From Polytrichum commune (taxonomy: Eukaryota > Streptophyta > Polytrichopsida > Polytrichales > Polytrichaceae), in contig OX485804.1 in assembly GCA_950295325.1 (NCBI GenBank), positions 30,194,001-30,258,000 of the forward strand: DNA of 64,000 nucleotides, given 5' to 3'. The notes under the pieces were generated by a model, which saw only the letters and a list, made by a program, of their open reading frames with translations, did no database searches and was not told the DNA's origin. Positions 7,297 through 64,000 of this stretch are shown piece by piece. The position numbers were made by a program, and so were the translations under genes. Position 1 is the stretch's first letter. Every line of letters begins with the position of its first letter.

Positions 7297-7610
7297 CCTT
7301 CCCCGTCCGCCCCATTTTTTAAAAAAAAATTCCCCCCCCTCCGTCCGCCCCGTTCCCAACCCCGTCCGCCCCGTTCCCCCCCGTTCCCCCCCGTCCGCGC
7401 CCCGTTCCCCCCCCGTCCGCCCCTCCGTCCGCTCCCCCGTCCGCCCCAGTTTCCCCCCCCCCCTTCCCCGTCCGCCCCATTCCCAACCCCGTCCGCCCCG
7501 TTCCCCCCCGTCCACCCCCGTTCCCGACTCCGTCCGCTCCGTTCCCGCCCCCGTTCCCGACCCCGTCCGCTCCGTTCCCCCCCCCCCCCCACCCCCGTCC
7601 GCCCCACACC
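7165..7610. repeat. GC-rich CCGTCCGCCCCGTTCCC minisatellite with poly-T
   Basis: Irregular tandem units built from CCGTCCGCCCC, GTTCCC and AACCCC, interrupted by a poly-T run at about 7258-7294. The strand is strongly C-rich. Long open frames in this stretch on both strands are compositional artefacts (Pro/Arg or Gly/Arg repeats), not genes. It lies wholly inside the TIR element. Confidence 0.9.
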
Positions 7611-19390: not shown

Positions 19391-20984
19391 ATGGAAAACA
19401 AACGGAACAACACCCCCACACCCCTTACATGTGTGGCGGCCCGTCCCATGTTACGGGAGCCCCCCCACCCCCCCTTCCTTCATCCGGGTGGCGATCGAGT
19501 CGCCTCTTACACCTGGCACGCCAGGTGGCAAAGACTGATAGGAAGGAGGGGCAGAGACTCATTTAACATAGGTGGAAAGGTTGGTCGTCGTCGGCTAGGG
19601 GGTAGGGGGGGGGGTTCGCCAGGGAGCAATTGGTGCGGCCAAGGGCATTCTATGCTGCCGCTGCCTGCCGCGGGCTGCCACACTAGACCCGTCATAATAA
19701 ACGGCGACCTAGCTAGGCGAGGCCTACGAAGCCTACGTAGCGTCCAAGGCTGCGGCACTCCCCCCCTCCCTCCGCCATCCTCTCCCTCCCTCCCTCGCTC
19801 CCTCCCCCCACCCCCTGTCTATAATGTACTTTGGCGTTGCTGCTGTCTGATTGTCGCTGGCCGCACCATCCTTTCCTTTCCTTTCCCTTTTGCCTTGCCT
19901 TTCTTTCCCATTCCACCGCATTGCATTTCCCATCGCATTGTGTGCCGTCTCTTCTCCGCTCGCTCCTCTCGCCTGCCTCCAGCGAGGGAGGATTGGATGC
20001 GCGTCTGTCCGCCCTTCCTTATTGTCGTATTAGCAAGTTCTTGGAGTGTTGGAATCTTGTGGATGTGCGATTGGAGCGTGTGCGAATTTTTGTTTGTGTG
20101 AGTGAGCTTAGGGCGAGTGTTGTGTGTGTGCGTGTGTGTGAGGGGGAGAGAGAGAGAGAGGTCTAGGTTTCTCGTGTGTAGGTTTTGGTGTGTGTGAGCC
20201 TTGTGTTGTGTTGAAGTGTAGGTATATAGTTTTGTATAGTTTGTTTGTTTGTTTGTTTGTTGTTTGTGTGAGGTTGTTGAGGGAGAGGGAGGACGGTTTG
20301 CTTGGCGAGTAACTTAGTGGAGCGTTTTATTGATTGGAGGCGGTGTGTATTGTGGTGCGTGATTGGGAGTGAGTGGCGATTCGACTGTGGAGGAGGCGCA
20401 GTTTAGAGTTGCGTGTTGGTTATTGGTTGCGGTTTGTTGAAGGAAGTGGCATTGGCGAGGGGTGGAGTGTCTGCATTAGCTAGATTGGAGAACCGTGCGG
20501 GATCTTTTTTTTTGGTGATTGGAGGCTGAGCTTGGGGTGTGCGCTGGCGAGTGTTGGTGAAGGTGTAGGAGCTCGAGCTTTTCTTATGTATTTCCACCTT
20601 GTGTGACCAAGCAGCAGCTGGGGCTACGAATGAGGAATCTGGTCTGACAGGGTAGCCTTCACGACGCGTGTGGCAGGGGGCCAGTCGAGTTTGAAGCTCA
20701 ATTTTTTGAAAATTGTGGCAATCAATTGAGACGCCGCGCTATAATTTATTTCCTGTGCGAGTTTCTGGAGGTTCGATATCAATCTTTCCAATTGATATAT
20801 TCCTCGAAGAAGAGGTGCCAACGCACTTGTATAAAAATCGGCGGATTGTGGAAACTATCTGAAGCATCAGCAATTGGTAAGAGGACGCCAATGAAAGTAG
20901 GAAGTTCTTAGAGAGATAGGGAGTGTGAAGGAGGCGGAACAGAGAAGAGAGAAGCAGTTGTACAGAGAGACAGGAAGGGAAGGG
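19391..20984 (+). promoter_or_regulatory. Upstream region and leader of the WW-domain gene
   Basis: The sequence turns GC- and CT-rich from about 19420 (CCTCCC runs, TTTCCTTTCC runs at 19870-19910), as is common around plant transcription starts. Further down are (GT)n and (GA)n tracts at 20121-20160 and a (GTTT)n tract at 20238-20262. The transcription start cannot be placed exactly. A seven-codon upstream ORF (ATG at 20891, TAG at 20909-20911) precedes the main start at 20985 and could lower its translation. The 236-codon open frame at 19391-20101 is compositional and is not called. Confidence 0.45.
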
Positions 20985-22736
20985 ATGGGGAGAGCAGGGC
21001 GTGCAGCGCCTCGCACTTGCTCAACGTTGGAACTGCGCACTCATGTGTCTTCTCCTTTGACGGTCTCTCTTCTTCCTCCTACGACGACCGTTTCGAAGCC
21101 GTCAGTGCCAAGTAGTCCTCCATCTCCAAGCACTCCAGTACAGGAAGCACCTGCGAGTGTGACTCCCATGCGTCAGGCGTGGCCACAGGATGTGCTGCAA
21201 GTGGTGCAGCTTCAGCTGGAGTCGATCAGGTCCCATTCAGTAGTGCAACCCAATGAAACCGTCATGTCTCGAAAGCGCGGATTCCAATCTTCCGAGTCGT
21301 ATGAGGATGTTAAGAAGCAGCAGCAAGACGAACTGGCGGTCTCGCCTGGCTTGGAGGTGGAGCTTCAAGCGCAAACTCCTTTGCCACAGGACTGGGAACA
21401 ATGTTTGGACCTTAAGGTCAGAAATACACCTAACTGCTTCTTATTATCCTTGTGTCGATACGTTGCCAACAGCACCGCTTAGTGTAATGCCATTTGGAAC
21501 AAATAGAAATGTGGAACGTGTAATTCCTCATTCCTATAGCGGTCAAATTGACAAGTTGAGCGGCTTTCTGTCAATGTCATTTTTCGAATGTTTGCCAGAC
21601 GGGGCAGTTCAACTATTCCCATTGGAATATACTCTGAGCTTTTCATTGTGCTTATATCTTGTTGCCAACATTACTGCTTAGTTTGCCATTTGGAACAAAT
21701 CGCAATGTGGGACATGTAATTCCTCATTCCTATAGAGTTTAGATTAACAGTTGAGCGGCTCGCTGTCGATGTTGTTTGTGCTCAAGTCTCTGACAGACAG
21801 GAATGTTTTGTCACCGGAAGGGCAGTTTCTACTACTTATACTGCAATATACTCTTAACTTTTCATTGTGCTTGTATGTTGTTGCTGACGGTACTGCTTAG
21901 TAAGTATGCCAGTTTCAAGAAGTGGTAAAGTGGAACATGTAATTCCTCGTCCCTACAGTGTTTAAATTGACAATTAAGCGGCTTGCTGTCGACGTTGTTT
22001 GGACTCGAGTCTCTCTGACAGATAGGAATGTTTCTCACAGACAGGGTAGTTCTATTGCTACTTCCACTGGCATATACTCTTGAACCTTCCATTGTGTATG
22101 TTGTCGCCAGCATTACTGCTTAGTATGCCATTAGGCGAACATGGAGCGGTTGCTGTTTGAGGTCAAATAGGTGGAACTTGGCATTCCTCACTCCTACACA
22201 GGCTTAAATTGACAGTTGAACGGCTTACTGTTGAAGTTGTTTGTGCTCGAGTCCCTGACAAACATAAATGTCACTTGTCACAGACGGGGCAGTTCTACTA
22301 CTTCCACTGGAGTACCTGCAAGCGAGCTAAGCAGGATCCTCGGGAGCTTATTCGTCAAGCTGACAAGTGTGTGCAAGCTCATGTTATGCTAGCTGTTGCT
22401 CGTGAGGATGAGTGTACCTCTGACAATGCAGAGCAAGCTTCATCGCATGAGGAAGAAGAGGAAGTGAATAGTCAAGCTGGGACATCATCGGCTCGTGATG
22501 CATGCGCACAAACAAGCAGCGAATGTGCTGAGACATCCAGGTGCGGAAGACAAGACCAGGAAGACGACGGTGCTGTGTGCACAAGCAAGAAGCAACAGGG
22601 AGAAACAAGCCAAGACACTGTAATGGCTGTTTTGGGCTGCAGCAGCTGTTCGATGATTGTAATGCTTCATGTGTCGTCACCAGCATGCCCAAGCTGTGGT
22701 GCTTCCTTGCACCCGAGCCACGAAGGAATCCGCTAA
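20985..22736 (+). CDS. WW-domain protein, CFL1-like (2 exons)
   Basis: Exons are 20985-21416 and 22284-22736, joined in phase 0 (AAG|gtcaga, cacag|ACG), giving 294 residues. The WW domain spans the junction at about residues 133-163: LPQDWEQCLDLK is in exon 1 and TGQFYYFHW...KQDP in exon 2. The second canonical Trp is replaced by Lys (160), as I recall for plant CURLY FLAG LEAF1-type proteins. The C-terminus carries paired CxxC motifs (263-266 and 279-282), zinc-ribbon-like, matching the conserved tail of that family. The family is linked to cuticle and leaf development through binding of transcription factors in angiosperms; the role here is inferred only. The start is the first ATG after an in-frame stop at 20898-20900. 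The middle (about 185-250) is acidic and low-complexity. The intron carries a tandem array of decayed exon-2 starts. Confidence 0.85.
21417..22283 (+). repeat. Tandem array of intron plus exon-2 start (about 4 units)
   Basis: Units of roughly 200-240 bp share, in order, a GCCATTTGGAAC word (starting near 21488, 21685, 21907 and 22127), AATTCCTCATTCCTA, a TTGAGCGGCT word, and a copy of the start of exon 2 followed by ATATACTCT...TGCTTAG. Exon-like copies lie at 21599-21625 (AG acceptor and frame intact for nine codons, TGQFNYSHW, then a stop after three more codons), about 21811-21844 (acceptor lost) and 22041-22070 (AG kept, TAG as third codon). The fourth is the genuine exon start at 22284. 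Confidence 0.88.
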
Positions 22737-24700
22737 GAGACGACCTGAAAGGGTCGTGCATATAGGCCTTGCTTATAGTCATTGTCAGGAAAAGCCAATG
22801 ACAATGACTCTAAGCAATGTTGAAGCAAGCCGCCTCGGAGGGGAGAAGCCTGGAACGAGAGACATAGGCATGCTCATCTCATTCCGCTCCGAGTGCTCAG
22901 GTTCTACCGCAATCGCTCGCCCAATCTCAGGCAGAGTTTTAATGGACGCTCACGCTATATCTCATTGCTTAGGTCCATTGTCAGGAAAAAGACAATGACA
23001 ATGGCTCTAAGCAGTGTGCTACTACTCTGAAGGTTGTGGAGCTTGCAAGGTTGCTGCTTCAAGATGAAGGGATCCTCTCTCAAGAGACATCATGTCTCCT
23101 TCTGCCAGGCGAAAGCTGCAATGGCATGATGGGGGTCGGGTATGGAAGTACCATGAGAGGAACTTTGAATTGTCACATGTGCGTGAAAGGGTGTTCATCA
23201 TCTACATATTCTTGTAGAGAGCCCTTGTGTCACCACTTGACGATTTTGTACTTTATGAGATACATTGACTGCAGAAGAAGAATGGACACCTCGTCTATTT
23301 TGCTCACTCACCGTTCGTTGCATTCTTGAATGTGATGTTGTCACGCTTTGTTTGCTCTTTCATCCCCTCAGTGAAGGGCACGAGTGTGATTACCAGGCTG
23401 ACACTAGAATTCTCTGCAGATACAACCCCTATGTTGACATGGTGACCTTCCTTGCACAGTCATGTCATTTCATGTTATCGGGATATGTCTGTATTATGGT
23501 TTCTTTCTCGAAGATTGGCTGATGTATCTCCACATTCTGCCTCTGTTTGAATCTTTGAGAAGTTATCCAAAAAGCGGAAGTAAAATGTGGGAACTGCAAT
23601 AGGCCTCACAAACAAGAGAGCACATTCGTGCAGGTCTGTGTCTGCAAACATCATCACTCAAATGGTGCACGCCCAATAAATCTTATCTTCTGGCTGTCAA
23701 GCAAAACCCCAGCTGCGGATGCTGCTACTTAGTCAGGAAAGCCACCATTCAAATGCTTTCTGGTCAGGTAAAGAAGACTCCCTTCTCTTCAATCCACGTT
23801 TCCAGGAAGTTGTTTTTCCCAAGAAGTGAGCACTTGGCTAGGAGCAGTTTTTTTTGTTGTTCAGCTCCTCGGCCACTCAATGAGTGCCTACCAGATACAC
23901 ACTCAGTGCTCAATGCATCAAAAATAATATGATAGTGCATTCAATGCTTAGGCGCAATCAAACTGTTGCACTTTCATCTGCAAGTGTCCTCATCCATGCA
24001 TAACAAGAATGTCATATAATATGATGCCCGTAAAGCAAGATATCCGATTTCTAAACTGTGAAACGGTTTGAACTTGCCAGACATGTACATGCCTGCATTT
24101 AGCTCGAAATAATCTCCGCATTTTCAAATGTGTGGAATTCTGAAGTGCATCTAACAACTACCGTCAGCTTAGTCTCAACTTGGAAGGTTGTTGACTAGTG
24201 AAAAAGGAATTGGTCAAATTGCTCGTGTCTTTTCCTCCAGCAGGTGTTATCAATTTCATCCAACCATGTGCAGGAAGATTGGGGTTGGCATCATCCGAGC
24301 AAATAATATTTTAAAAGCCTGCCACCTCTAATGTGATTGAAGAACATTTAAAGCCACTTGTCTTGTATCTCCCACACCATGTTCTGTCTCAGGACGAAGC
24401 TTTATATTAACTACAAAACCTAAACTGCTGTTAAAGGGTGCAGACATTGGAGTGGCATCTAGAAATGAAACTGATGTTGACGTAAATCGATCTTCTACCA
24501 GTAACCTGCATGTAAGTATGCATCTTCCCTTTCCATGAAGTAAATCCACTAAGGTTAAGCTTGTTATTTGACTATACTTAATCCTGCACCTTTTATTTCA
24601 ATCAGCATTGATTACCGTTTGAAGTTGCTATGTAGGGATTATAACTTTGTTCTTGAGAATACAATATTTCATGAACACAACACAAATAGGATAGTAGGGA
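22737..24700 (+). other. Probable 3' region of the WW gene, no further gene seen
   Basis: Contains many short open frames but no splice-linked coding pattern that I recognise. It includes two copies of a hairpin-forming motif (22780-22820 and 22976-23014). The composition is closer to the gene than to the repeat-rich flanks, so it may be a long 3' UTR, a non-coding transcript or a decayed gene. Confidence 0.35.
22780..23014 (+). repeat. Duplicated hairpin motif, about 196 bp apart
   Basis: CATTGTCAGGAAAA...TGACAATG...CTCTAAGCA occurs at 22780-22820 and 22976-23014. In both copies the arms CATTGTCA and TGACAATG are perfect complements around a loop of about 12 bases. The GCTTA just upstream of each copy is also shared, so the duplicated unit is larger than the hairpin alone. 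Confidence 0.75.
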
Positions 24701-44258: not shown

Positions 44259-44860
44259 GATGAGGCCTAAGATTCCCAAAACCCAAATGTCGTTAACCCA
44301 AAAACCCCAAGTAAGGTGAGCTACTCGTCCCTTTCTTCCAAGCATCTTCCTACATCTCCATTTCAGATGCTCTCGTCAAATCCACCCTGCATTTGAATGA
44401 TGAGGCCTGACATTCCCTAAATCGAAATCTCTGCAAATGTAATTAACCCTCAAACCCCAAGCATCCGCGTTACCTAAGCAGGGTACCGCATCATCTTCCT
44501 TTCAGATTCTCTCTCCATCCACCCCGCTTCTAAATGATGAGGCCTGAACTTTCCTAACCCACAATCTCTGCAAATGCGGTTAACCCACAGACCCTAAGCA
44601 AAGGAGCTTCCTAGATCATCTTCCTTTCAGATGCTCTCTTCAAATCCACCCTGCATTTGAACGATGAGCCCTAGCAAGCATCTCCTAACCCCCACATCTC
44701 TTCAAACGTCGTTAATTCACAGACCCCAAGAATCTGAGCTACTCGCAATGAGCTAATCCGCCCTTTTCTTCCCAATGAGATATTCCTAAGTTACATCTTC
44801 CATTCAGCTGCTCTCTTTTTCAAGCTTCCATCCGCCCACCCTGCATTTGAAACTGTGCGC
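44259..44860. repeat. Minisatellite upstream of AUG1, units of about 127-190 bp
   Basis: The marker GATGAGGCCT/GATGAGCCCT occurs at 44259, 44399, 44536 and 44663. Each unit also has CATCTTCCTTTCAGATGCTC-like and CCACCCTGCATTTGAA words. The array begins about 60 bp upstream of the AUG1 start codon, so it occupies the leader or promoter of that gene. Confidence 0.8.
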
Positions 44861-60569: not shown

Positions 60570-63420
60570 ATGCACTTGTGATGAGAATCCTGTGTGTCCT
60601 AGTTTCTTTAGCACACAAGCTTATCATTCTTCTAGCTCCTATAAGCCAAGTCGATTTTCTTCAAACTCTGCCACCCCTGCAGATGCGTCCAATCTTGGCA
60701 TCAGAATAAACTATGTAGGAGAGGAAAAGAAAATGGAGAACAATGATAAATCAGTGACTGCATTGTATAAACAAAGCAAAAGGACAGTATGATGTCCTCA
60801 AGCATTACCACCTGAAATGTTCTCAATAAAGAGCCCTTGATAATTCACTGAGCAGAAGTATGAGGGTCAGCCTTCAGGGGTACAAGCGCTGCACCCTTGT
60901 TACACAGTCTCAAGCTGTCCAAAGAGGGTAAGATTTGCGTGATTGTAAATATTTCAGGCATATAATTTGATGATAATAGAGTCATCCTTTAGTTCAAAGG
61001 GACTTTTCAAGGGGGGTTGGTAGTTTTGTGTGCAACCCTTCCCATGTTCGGTAAGTTTTCAGTGCATGCTTGGAGCTAGTGTGGAGGTTTGAACGAAGAG
61101 CAAAAAACATTCCATGCAGGTTCATTGAGGGTCAAAATAATTTTGGCACACCAAAGGGTGCTAAAATGAGCTTGGCCTTCAAAGAATCGAAAGAGGTTGC
61201 TCTACATTCAAATTCAAACACTACCTCCAAGCATGCACCACGAGTGGAAAGAAATTGATGATATGGTATGGCAACCAACCAATAAAAAAACATAGGGGCC
61301 AACCCTTGACGAAAAGTCCCATTAAATTAAAGGATAACTCTCATAAAGAAGACATAACTTGATAGACATCGCTGAATGCCCGGCGTCAAAATTAGAGGAG
61401 AACTCGAGTTGGAACTCTGCCATCAAGACTCTTAAAGTCCAGGGGCACTTCCTTAAAACCTTGGAAGCACTAAGTCCTCCTTCCAACATTTCTGCCTGCT
61501 GCCTTCAGAGCTCTCAAATTCCTCATTATTACCAAGTAGAAAGTTTTGTAAAGCGAAATGTTTATTACCTCACAATCATCGTGGTCCTTCCGGTTTCTGC
61601 AAACTTTTTTCAGAAATGTTCATACCTCTTATTCTATTGAGCTACTACGATTCACTGCTCACAACCTCTCAATCTTCCAGTTATCTACAAATGTTGATTT
61701 ATTATCACCACATAGAGCTTTGTACTGCCAGCATTTTACACGAAGTCTAGCACAGCCGATACACGATTGAAGCAAAATGCTGTGTGCACCGTCAACTAGA
61801 ACTACTGAATCTCTAGCCGGGATCTCGTATTTTCAATATCTCGGTAAAAGTTAATAAGGAACATACACATCTGCAGTCAGCCTCAAAACTTCAAGTCGTA
61901 TCAGGTGGACGACACTGTTCGTAACAGGTGAAAGGGATCTTTTACATCGGTGCGTCGACTTTTGAGTCGCCACGAGGACATTCAAATAGGTTTTTGTATG
62001 AACTCGATGTGAGAAATATGCATTAATATATAGACAATAACATGTAAAGTACGGCGTGCAAATATTATATATAAACTGCTGTAGAAGGAGCAGGAGGCAG
62101 GCAATTCAAGGTTAGCTAGGCCAGAGGAAAAACCCACATGAGAAAGTTGTGGACCAAAGTCAAACCGATTCAAAGAGATTCTCTTCTTCTCTAGTATTCT
62201 GATACCGCCGGATTGCAGTCGAAACATTGCCAATCTAAGTTAGCAATAATAAGCGGAGTCCGCGCTACATAGGGAAGAAAACTTCTGCTCCCTTATATCT
62301 AGCAGCTTTTCGTATTCAGATCTCAGGTGTAATTTTCAAGAACCGTCACATCTTCCATATCCACAGGAAAAGAGTTCAGATAGGAGAGATTCGCTTACCA
62401 TTTCTGCAAGCAATGGCTGAAGTTTCGGCCGCCGTATGTTCTTTCCCTCATTGAGGGCGCTCCCTCTCTTCTCAATGGTAATATGTAAGTGCCAAACTAC
62501 AATCTAACAATAAACTCCAGTATTGAAAACTAGCAAAATTCCAGTAACAAGTCTTCGGGAACCTCGCCGTACACCTCGACGACTCCAACGATCGCCTCTC
62601 CAATGACACCACGACGCAATAATAATTACGCTCAAATGTAGAAGTGAATCCCCGCTACAGGAACACCCCGGCTCCCTACACACCGGCCTAGAACGACAAG
62701 AAGCATCCTCCAAGCTCACAATCTCACCATAACCGAAACTCCTTCCATCCACTCTCCGTCAAAAACCTAAACTAAACTAAACTAAACTAAACTTTCTAGC
62801 ACCAACTGCTGCCACCTGAGCGCAGATCTACCACTTTCTTCCTGCCAAAACGCCTTGCCGAACTCGCACATTACATTCCTCACAACAAAAAACACCTCGC
62901 CTCGCTCTCAAGACTAACGCGAAACAAGATTGACGAATACCGACTTCTTACTCTTCTTCTTACTCTTATTCCCGAACCTCCTCTTCCACACAGCCTGTAT
63001 ATTCACCTCCTACATCTTGCGCTTGCCATGTCATCAAGAGCATCCATATACAACACAGACTTCACGATTCATCACAAGTCCGCAGAACCAGAACCCGGGG
63101 AACATCTGAGTGACGCGAATCCCCTCCGCATTCACCACAACCTGTATGTTCACTATCTTAGCTATACCTGTAGCACATGTTCTCCAAGTGAATCTAAATT
63201 GAAGTCAGAGCGAATTTGAGATAACAGAGGCGAAGGACGGCTCCCGAACATCGACGTGAAGCTAATAAGCTAGACTGAAGCCGGCGATCTGAAGGCGAAG
63301 GAGAAAGAAGCAAAAGAAGGCTGCGAAGGGATGGGGGTGACAGCTTTGTGTTTTTGTGTTTGTCTTGGTTTTGTTGGCCTTCCCCGCTTAGTTCCTTGCT
63401 AGCTCCAGCGTAGTACATAG
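60570..63420 (-). promoter_or_regulatory. Upstream region of the GT47 gene, possible leader intron
   Basis: On the minus strand a good donor (AAATG|gtaagcga, donor at 62398-62397) follows a GC-richer stretch at 62400-63400, and a plausible acceptor (atctgcag) lies at 60677-60680, shortly before the ATG. This would give a spliced 5' UTR with an intron of about 1.7 kb. It is an inference from site quality only. An (AAACT)n tract lies at 62768-62794. No protein-coding exon was recognised in the region. Confidence 0.35.
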
Positions 63421-64000
63421 AGTTTAACGAATAATACGCTTCATTGCCAGGCTATGGTAGATGGGTCTTAAATGGTTACTTTTTCCCACCGCACTGACTA
63501 TCCCATTTAGTACGTGTGGTACTAAAGGGCCGGTTCACACGGGTCCCAAGTCCTCTGTCCCAAGTCCCTTGAGGTCAATCCGTGCAATCTCAGCCGTTGA
63601 GAGCATGGAAATTGGGACTTACCACTTCACACGGGTCCCAAGATCCAAATATGGCACAGTTGCCTTTATAGAGTTTAACGAATATAGTTTAACGAATAAT
63701 ATGCTTCATTGCCATGCTATGGTAGATGGGTCTTAAATGGTTATTTTTTTCCATTACATTTATTATCCCATTTAGTGCATGTGGTACTAAATGGCCGGTT
63801 CACACGGGTCCCAAGTCCTCATTCCCAAGTCTCTTGAGGTCAATCCGTGCAATCTCAGCCGTTGAGAACATGGAAATTGGGACTTACCACTTCACACGGG
63901 TCCCAAGACCCAAATATGGCACAAATGCCTACATGGAGTTTAATGAATAATATGCTTCATTGCCACACTATGGTAGATGGGTCCTAAATGGTTACTTTTT
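63420..64000. repeat. Tandem satellite, units about 250-267 bp, open at the window end
   Basis: Unit starts at GAGTTTAACGAATAATACGC (63420), AGTTTAACGAATAATATGC (63687) and GAGTTTAATGAATAATATGC (63939); the third is cut by the window edge. Each unit contains CACACGGGTCCCAAG twice, and the shared words TGAGGTCAATCCGTGCAATC and GAAATTGGGACTTACCAC. Units 1 and 2 are about 90% alike by eye. The small open frames in it repeat with the units and are not genes. Confidence 0.9.

What the first reader, a model, noticed from the sequence alone, without database searches (positions are those of the whole stretch)
21417..22310. Intron that repeats its own downstream exon start: decoy WW exons in tandem
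The single intron of the WW-domain gene is an array of about four units, each ending in a version of the first 27 bases of exon 2. The first decoy (21599-21625) still has an AG acceptor and reads TGQFNYSHW in frame before a stop three codons later. The second lost its acceptor and the third has AG but an early TAG. Splicing to decoy 1 would make a protein truncated inside the WW domain. The array therefore records repeated unequal duplication of an intron-exon boundary and may offer competing 3' splice sites.
Basis: partly seen in the sequence, partly recalled or inferred. Interest (0 to 1): 0.75.

Follow-up and report, generated by a model that had tools for sequence, protein, structure and literature searches.

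The report
Plant intron carrying decaying exon-start copies
In a plant-like gene, the end of an intron together with the start of the next exon was copied in tandem several times, leaving an intron with decaying false exon starts; the process is known in principle, but a related gene shows a similar copy at the same intron.

Summary
The 867-nt intron (21417-22283) of a two-exon, CFL1-like gene (weak WW and GIR1-type zinc-ribbon matches) is a tandem array of four units of 206-240 nt. Each runs from intron position about +6 to about +29 of exon 2. Searches of the genome find only this locus, against a dispersed transposon.

The exon-like parts differ from true exon 2 at 4, 7 and 4 of 28 sites and from each other at 11, 8 and 10: a conserved exon with independently decaying copies. 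The units carry the acceptor but not the donor, so the copies stay inside the intron. Decoy 1's acceptor scores like the true one (5.46 vs 5.06); leaky, non-productive splicing is plausible but untested.

New: of six family members sharing this intron site, a second (C6a) carries a copy of its own exon-2 start. A third (C6b) has an intron array whose reach into the exon is inconclusive. By one criterion 2 of 6 family introns and 0 of 77 control introns have an acceptor-crossing duplication; without the index case 1 of 5, p = 0.06.

Close precedent: potato RdRp (PMC4974935). New variant of a known kind.

The parts
20985..21416 (+). exon 1, from ATG to ...LPQDWEQCLDLK (first half of WW domain); donor at 21417
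   Evidence: ATG chosen by me, upstream limits not tested
21417..22283 (+). intron of 867 nt, GT...AG, phase 0, at the K|TG site shared with the paralogs examined
21422..21627 (+). unit u0: intron +6 to the end of decoy exon start 1
21599..21627 (+). decoy 1: intact AG acceptor, reads TGQFNYSHW, stop TGA at 21635
21628..21846 (+). unit u1, ending in decoy 2
21818..21846 (+). decoy 2: acceptor AG lost, 7 of 28 differences from the true exon
21847..22072 (+). unit u2, ending in decoy 3
21900..21905 (+). GTAAGT, consensus-like cryptic donor inside u2, the only GTAAGT in the intron; with decoy 1 it would bound a 301-nt stop-containing exon
   Evidence: use not tested
22041..22072 (+). decoy 3: AG present, in-frame TAG at the third codon
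22073..22312 (+). unit u3, ending in the true exon 2 start
22284..22736 (+). exon 2: second half of WW domain, C-terminal GIR1-type zinc ribbon, stop

Best explanation
A segment running from just inside the intron (about +6) to about 29 nt into exon 2 was duplicated in tandem and then amplified to four copies. The donor lay outside the segment, so the spliceosome still sees one original donor and several acceptors, and the extra exon starts stayed inside the intron. Selection kept the last, true exon 2 nearly unchanged, while the three upstream copies drift like ordinary intron sequence. Decoy 2 has already lost its acceptor. Correct splicing may rely on the GC-rich coding context downstream of the true site. 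Use of decoy 1, if any, would give a truncated protein or an mRNA open to nonsense-mediated decay. Inferred: order and mechanism of duplication, neutrality, and splicing outcome.
For: Unit alignment and shuffle controls. One locus in the genome. The exon part itself adds to the self-match: 0 of 500 shuffled exon starts do as well, at each of three query lengths. Decoys lie 4, 7 and 4 of 28 from the true exon and 11 of 28, 8 of 28 and 10 of 29 from each other, close to additive with the true exon at the centre. Decoy changes 15 of 84 against 12.5% per lineage in the intron parts, p = 0.14. Three of the five paralogs (C2b, C2c, C4) have the intron without a detectable exon-2 copy or significant duplication. 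GC contrast across the site is +0.08 at the true acceptor and +0.02, -0.07 and +0.02 at the decoys. Tandem arrays of period 60 nt or more occur elsewhere: 3 others in the window, and 7 distinct arrays (8 TRF rows) in 12 arbitrary 10-kb pieces.
Against: Decoy 1 keeps an intact acceptor, no AG in the 38 nt before its site, and 7 of 9 residues of the true exon start, and its score equals the true site. The matrix used is only a rough guide: an AG unrelated to any decoy (21751) ranks first and the true site fourth of 47. A second family gene with a boundary copy, and a third with an intron array, are more than a single random event predicts. No RNA data and no orthologs from other species were available.
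Confidence: 0.74

Rival explanations
1. The array is a working splicing switch: decoy 1 (21599) with the cryptic donor GTAAGT at 21900 forms a poison or decoy exon, or the competing acceptors stall splicing, so that the amount of WW protein is set by how often the true site is reached.
For: Decoy 1 acceptor ranks 2 of 47 AGs in the stretch scanned and scores 5.46 against 5.06 for the true site, which is itself below the median of 77 control acceptors, 7.4. GTAAGT at 21900. Splicing to decoy 1 or decoy 3, and retention of the intron, all read into early stops. Decoy exons that hold introns back are known in human genes (PMC12017769, passages).
Against: Exon-like parts drift at least as fast as the intron. 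Decoy 2 and the C6a copy have lost the AG. In C6a and C6b the true acceptor clearly outscores the other AGs. No RNA.
Confidence: 0.14
2. This boundary is a hotspot: the same intron in the family is repeatedly hit by tandem duplication that can run through the acceptor, by local sequence fragility or by tolerance of the genes.
For: Significant duplication in 3 of 6 family introns against 2 of 77 control introns; the acceptor crossed by 10 nt or more on each side in 2 of 6 against 0 of 77. C6a carries GTGTTGCTGAAAACTGGGAAGCT against the true GTGTCGCTGCAGACTGGGAAGCT, 245 nt apart, and its exon part adds significantly (0 of 500 shuffled exons at each of three lengths). The likely duplicate partners C2b and C2c show no such duplication.
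Against: Numbers are small; without the index case the tests give p = 0.06 (crossing) and 0.017 (any duplication). For C6b the exon part is not established: exon-only test 320 of 500; match ends at +4 with the standard query; shuffled exons reach the score in 4, 114 and 62 of 500 at three lengths. Control acceptors were placed approximately, with 100 shuffles each against 500 for the family.
Confidence: 0.27
3. The units belong to a dispersed repeat or transposon that only resembles the exon.
For: None found; other tandem repeats occur in the window.
Against: Whole intron and a single unit match only this locus, within the stated limits of that search, which skips common words. Exon similarity is in register with the unit borders.
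Confidence: 0.02
4. Whole-exon duplication for mutually exclusive exons, later degraded.
For: Exon-like sequence is repeated in tandem.
Against: Only about 29 of the 453 bases of exon 2 up to the stop are copied, and no GT directly follows any of the 3 copies.
Confidence: 0.03

Closest known systems
Intron gain by tandem duplication across an intron-exon boundary, potato RdRp gene (Ma, Lan and Niu 2016, PMC4974935; abstract and Results and Discussion read)
   Same: Tandem duplication takes in the 3' part of an intron and the 5' part of the next exon, with acceptor and polypyrimidine signals copied.
   Different: In potato a cryptic exonic GTAAG was activated, so a second intron arose with an inserted exonic sequence; there are two copies differing at ten nucleotides. 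Here four copies at 78-84% identity lie inside one intron and no GT directly follows any copy.
[quoted passage not shown]
   Same: Tandem duplication changes the set of splice sites.
   Different: That model duplicates an exonic AGGT to make a new intron; here an existing intron grew.
Decoy exons that promote intron retention (OGT, SF3B1, ARGLU1; PMC12017769, passages read)
   Same: Extra 3' splice sites inside an intron that may engage the spliceosome without being productive.
   Different: For OGT the decoy has predicted 5' and 3' splice sites and was tested by experiment; here there is no RNA evidence, and the copies visibly descend from the downstream exon.
CFL1, a WW protein acting with the HD-Zip IV factor HDG1 in cuticle formation (PMC3645734, passages read)
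   Same: WW domain; in this genome the zinc ribbon and the intron site are shared with five paralogs.
   Different: The window gene scores below both Pfam cut-offs and has the lowest ribbon score of the six. The link to CFL1 itself is recalled, not tested by sequence.

Membership tests
Intron gain by boundary-crossing tandem duplication | tandem duplication spans 3' splice site and exon start | tested here: met
Intron gain by boundary-crossing tandem duplication | a donor becomes available after the exon copy, so a new intron and exon arise | tested here: not met
   No GT directly after any of the 3 copies (they continue into AATATAC or CATATAC); decoys 1 and 3 run into stops. A GTAAGT further downstream at 21900 leaves a longer exon possible; RNA not available.
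Mutually exclusive duplicated exons | whole exons copied with both splice sites | tested here: not met
   about 29 nt copied
Decoy exons regulating intron retention | functional 3' splice site inside the intron | tested here: inconclusive
   decoy 1 scores like the true site; binding and use untested
Decoy exons regulating intron retention | decoy needed for regulated retention | not testable with these tools
   needs RNA and mutants
Dispersed transposon or satellite | copies elsewhere in the genome | tested here: not met
   one locus only; that search skips very common words
CFL1-like WW proteins | WW domain | tested here: inconclusive
   PF00397 21.4 bits, cut-off 26.9
CFL1-like WW proteins | C-terminal GIR1-type zinc ribbon (association with CFL1 recalled) | tested here: inconclusive
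   19.0 bits, cut-off 26; five paralogs 43.8-53.3 bits
CFL1-like WW proteins | intron between CLD(L/M)K and (T/S)G of the WW domain (feature of the paralogs here) | tested here: met
   6 of 6 genes

The most novel reading that the evidence does not exclude
The intron that splits the WW domain of this gene family is a recurrent target of boundary-anchored tandem duplication. At least two, possibly three, of six paralogs separately filled it with copies of their own exon-2 start, and the copies act, or once acted, as competing 3' splice sites that throttle the output of a developmental regulator.
Probability: 0.13. Interest if true: 0.65.

Novelty: new variant of a known kind. Interest (0 to 1): 0.4.

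Why it matters
It is a readable case of an intron growing from its 3' end by copying its own acceptor and exon start, with the functional site the most distal of several. It asks a testable question: how does the spliceosome pass an equally scored copy 685 nt nearer to the donor? If the recurrence in paralogs holds in other species, it would point to a fragile or selected boundary.

Tried and rejected
Dispersed repeat or transposon: disfavoured. Mutually exclusive exons: disfavoured, no donors and only about 29 nt copied. Rfam element in 20400-23600: 0 matches at E up to 1. TRF on the five paralog loci and 31 control loci (the controls total 74,861 nt) gave no row of period 40 or more; the longest period was 24, and a separate TRF run on L012 agrees. 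So the C6a and C6b duplications rest on alignment against shuffles and the repeat finder. C4 intron: 17 of 500 shuffles reach its score, not counted as duplicated.

C6b exon part, results for and against: exon-only test 320 of 500 shuffles reach it. Standard query ends at +4. A 250-nt query reached +29, without a shuffle control, while 350- and 420-nt queries ended at -85 and -191. 3 of 5 candidate decoys resemble the exon start (38, 78 and 78 of 8000 controls reach them) and 2 do not (2795 and 1529 of 8000); four of the five were picked by a pattern that already held AGTC(T/C)G. Shuffled exon starts reach the score in 4, 114 and 62 of 500 at query lengths 60, 120 and 170. I call it inconclusive.

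The second array in the window, about 44340-44850, looks like repeated acceptors (TTTCAG ATGCTCTC) but lies beside an ORF on the other strand, so it is not taken as a boundary array. Order of the duplications: distances are near a star and were not resolved. Orthologs from other species: the collections on hand that I could scan hold no plant genomes, by their descriptions; none was scanned for this. Paper searches used; none of the listings showed this array, which is weak evidence only. Species name: not established; seven contigs of 42-78 Mb make up nearly all of 407.8 Mb, and that this fits a moss with n = 7 is recalled.

Rows dropped: control families used 51 of 56 Cpn60 matches (dropped: three intronless genes, one single match, one with four stops) and 74 of 144 kinesin matches (where 122 of 274 candidates were scored), in 20 genes picked by me from those with 3 or more matches. 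Of 40 Cpn60 gaps 30 were tested and of 54 kinesin gaps 47; the rest had a missing exon or were too short.

Full report
Observation. The intron starts at 21417 (AAG|gtcag) and ends at 22283 (cacag|ACGGGG). Joining exon 1 to 22284 keeps an open WW reading, LPQDWEQCLDLK-TGQFYYFHWSTCKRAKQDPR. TRF reports a period-223 array with score 555, and self-comparison shows lags of 196, 219, 223 and 242 among others. Cut at the repeat borders, the units are 21422-21627, 21628-21846, 21847-22072 and 22073-22312. Six of six pairs align at 78-84% identity (K2P 0.19-0.27), with z from 17.6 to 22.4 against 100 dinucleotide shuffles per pair. Aligned units and exon 2 show about 29 exon-like bases at the end of each unit. 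Decoy 1 has AG and reads TGQFNYSHWNIL-stop, decoy 2 lacks AG, and decoy 3 has AG and reads TG-stop.

What was copied. The repeated piece runs from about intron +6 to about exon 2 +29. The exon-like end of each decoy continues directly into sequence like the intron's own start after its donor (GGAATATAC-like against GAAATACAC). The donor GTCAG is therefore outside the repeated piece, and no GT directly follows any of the three copies. All extra acceptors face the one original donor. The exact breakpoints are uncertain by a few bases. Adding the exon start to the intron query raises the self-match, and 0 of 500 shuffled exon starts do as well, at each of three query lengths.

Not a dispersed element. 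The 894-nt region and a single 226-nt unit each find only this locus in the 407.8-Mb genome. That search skips very common words, so this does not exclude every distant relative.

Decay, not conservation. In the exon-like part, decoys 1-3 differ from the true exon at 4, 7 and 4 of 28 sites and from one another at 11 of 28, 8 of 28 and 10 of 29 sites. The sums are nearly additive with the true exon at the centre, as expected if coding selection held exon 2 still while each copy drifted. Decoy change per lineage (15 of 84) does not differ from the intron parts of that alignment (12.5% per lineage; p = 0.14). The pairwise alignments give lower unit divergence (227 mismatches in 1208 aligned sites over whole units), against which the decoys would look faster, not slower. 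This argues against selection on the decoys as sequences, but with 28 sites the test is weak.

Could they be spliced? A position matrix from 77 control acceptors, themselves placed approximately, gives decoy 1 5.46, the true site 5.06 and decoy 3 4.23. The control median is 7.4. The matrix is a rough guide: an AG at 21751 that belongs to no decoy ranks first and the true site fourth of 47. In this gene local strength does not favour the true site. In paralogs C6a and C6b the true site ranks first (10.17 and 9.11). The true site alone has a clear GC rise into the exon (+0.08 against +0.02, -0.07 and +0.02). That plants may use such contrast is taken from the discussion in PMC4974935. GTAAGT at 21900, the only one in the intron, could with decoy 1 bound a 301-nt exon holding a stop. 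No RNA was available.

The gene. Its protein has a WW match (21.4 bits, cut-off 26.9) and a GIR1-type zinc ribbon match (19.0, cut-off 26), both below cut-off. Five other loci carry the ribbon above cut-off, and these five have a WW domain split at the same place. I call it CFL1-like. CFL1 as a WW protein acting in cuticle formation comes from PMC3645734 (passages); the link from this gene to CFL1 is by recall.

Paralogs. Introns are 867 (window), 349 (C2b), 468 (C6a), 987 (C2c), 832 (C6b) and 1256 nt (C4). The last part of the intron plus 40 exon bases was compared with the rest of the intron, with 500 shuffles each. None of 500 shuffles reached the score for the window, C6a and C6b; 368, 386 and 17 of 500 did for C2b, C2c and C4.

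C6a. The match crosses the acceptor to +31, and a 23-nt stretch across the boundary is 87% identical at 245 nt spacing. The copy has lost the AG and holds an insert of about 15 nt. The exon part alone is borderline (1 of 500; 4 of 300), but given the aligned intron part it is clear: 0 of 500 shuffled exons do as well at each of three query lengths.

C6b. The array has about five units. Its reach into the exon is inconclusive. The exon-only test is negative (320 of 500). The match ends at +4 with the standard query; a 250-nt query reached +29 but longer ones did not reach the acceptor. Single candidate decoys are mixed, and shuffled exons reach the score in 4, 114 and 62 of 500 at three lengths.

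Timing. C2b/C6a and C2c/C6b lie as neighbours on C2 and C6, though C2b is on the other strand, which suggests one old duplication (inference). C2b and C6a differ at 45 of 74 fourfold sites, much more than the window units differ from one another. The partners' lack of detectable duplication points to separate events.

Background. The same test on 30 Cpn60 introns and 47 kinesin introns, with 100 shuffles each, found 2 of 77 with an internal duplication and 0 of 77 crossing the acceptor by 10 nt on each side. The family has 3 of 6 and 2 of 6. Fisher tests give 0.002 and 0.004 with the index case, and 0.017 and 0.06 without it. Counts are small and control splice sites approximate, so the hotspot idea is a lead. 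Tandem arrays as such are common here: 4 with period 60 or more in the window and 7 distinct arrays (8 rows) in twelve 10-kb pieces at positions chosen by me.

Place among known things. The nearest case read is the potato RdRp gene, where a tandem duplication across an intron-exon boundary produced a new intron (PMC4974935, abstract and Results and Discussion). Here the donor was left out and the copies became part of the intron. The splicing-decoy idea has human examples (PMC12017769, passages). I rate this a new variant of a known kind, of moderate interest.

Noticed in passing
window 22763-22824 and 22958-23014: Two near-perfect hairpins 195 nt apart downstream of the stop codon (z -5.6 and -6.1), similar in sequence; one locus in the genome, no Rfam match.
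   Followed up: partly
window 44340-44850: By eye, four imperfect copies of a unit with a pyrimidine run, TTTCAG or ATTCAG and CTCTC, resembling repeated splice acceptors (TRF: 1.9 copies of 132 nt at 44490-44732), next to an ORF on the minus strand.
   Followed up: partly
window 63417-63949: Two copies of a 265-nt unit at about 90% matches, with what looks like the start of a third at the window end.
   Followed up: no
L010 (C6:41138758-41139225) and L012 (C6:41058826-41059657): Introns of two related WW genes with their own internal duplications: C6a through the acceptor, C6b at least up to it.
   Followed up: yes
G000 C2:11.917-11.974 Mb and C6:41.061-41.140 Mb: Two related WW/zinc-ribbon genes lie near one another on each contig, as if from one old segmental or genome duplication.
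   Followed up: partly
window 7332-7606: C-rich tandem repeats with period about 127.
   Followed up: no
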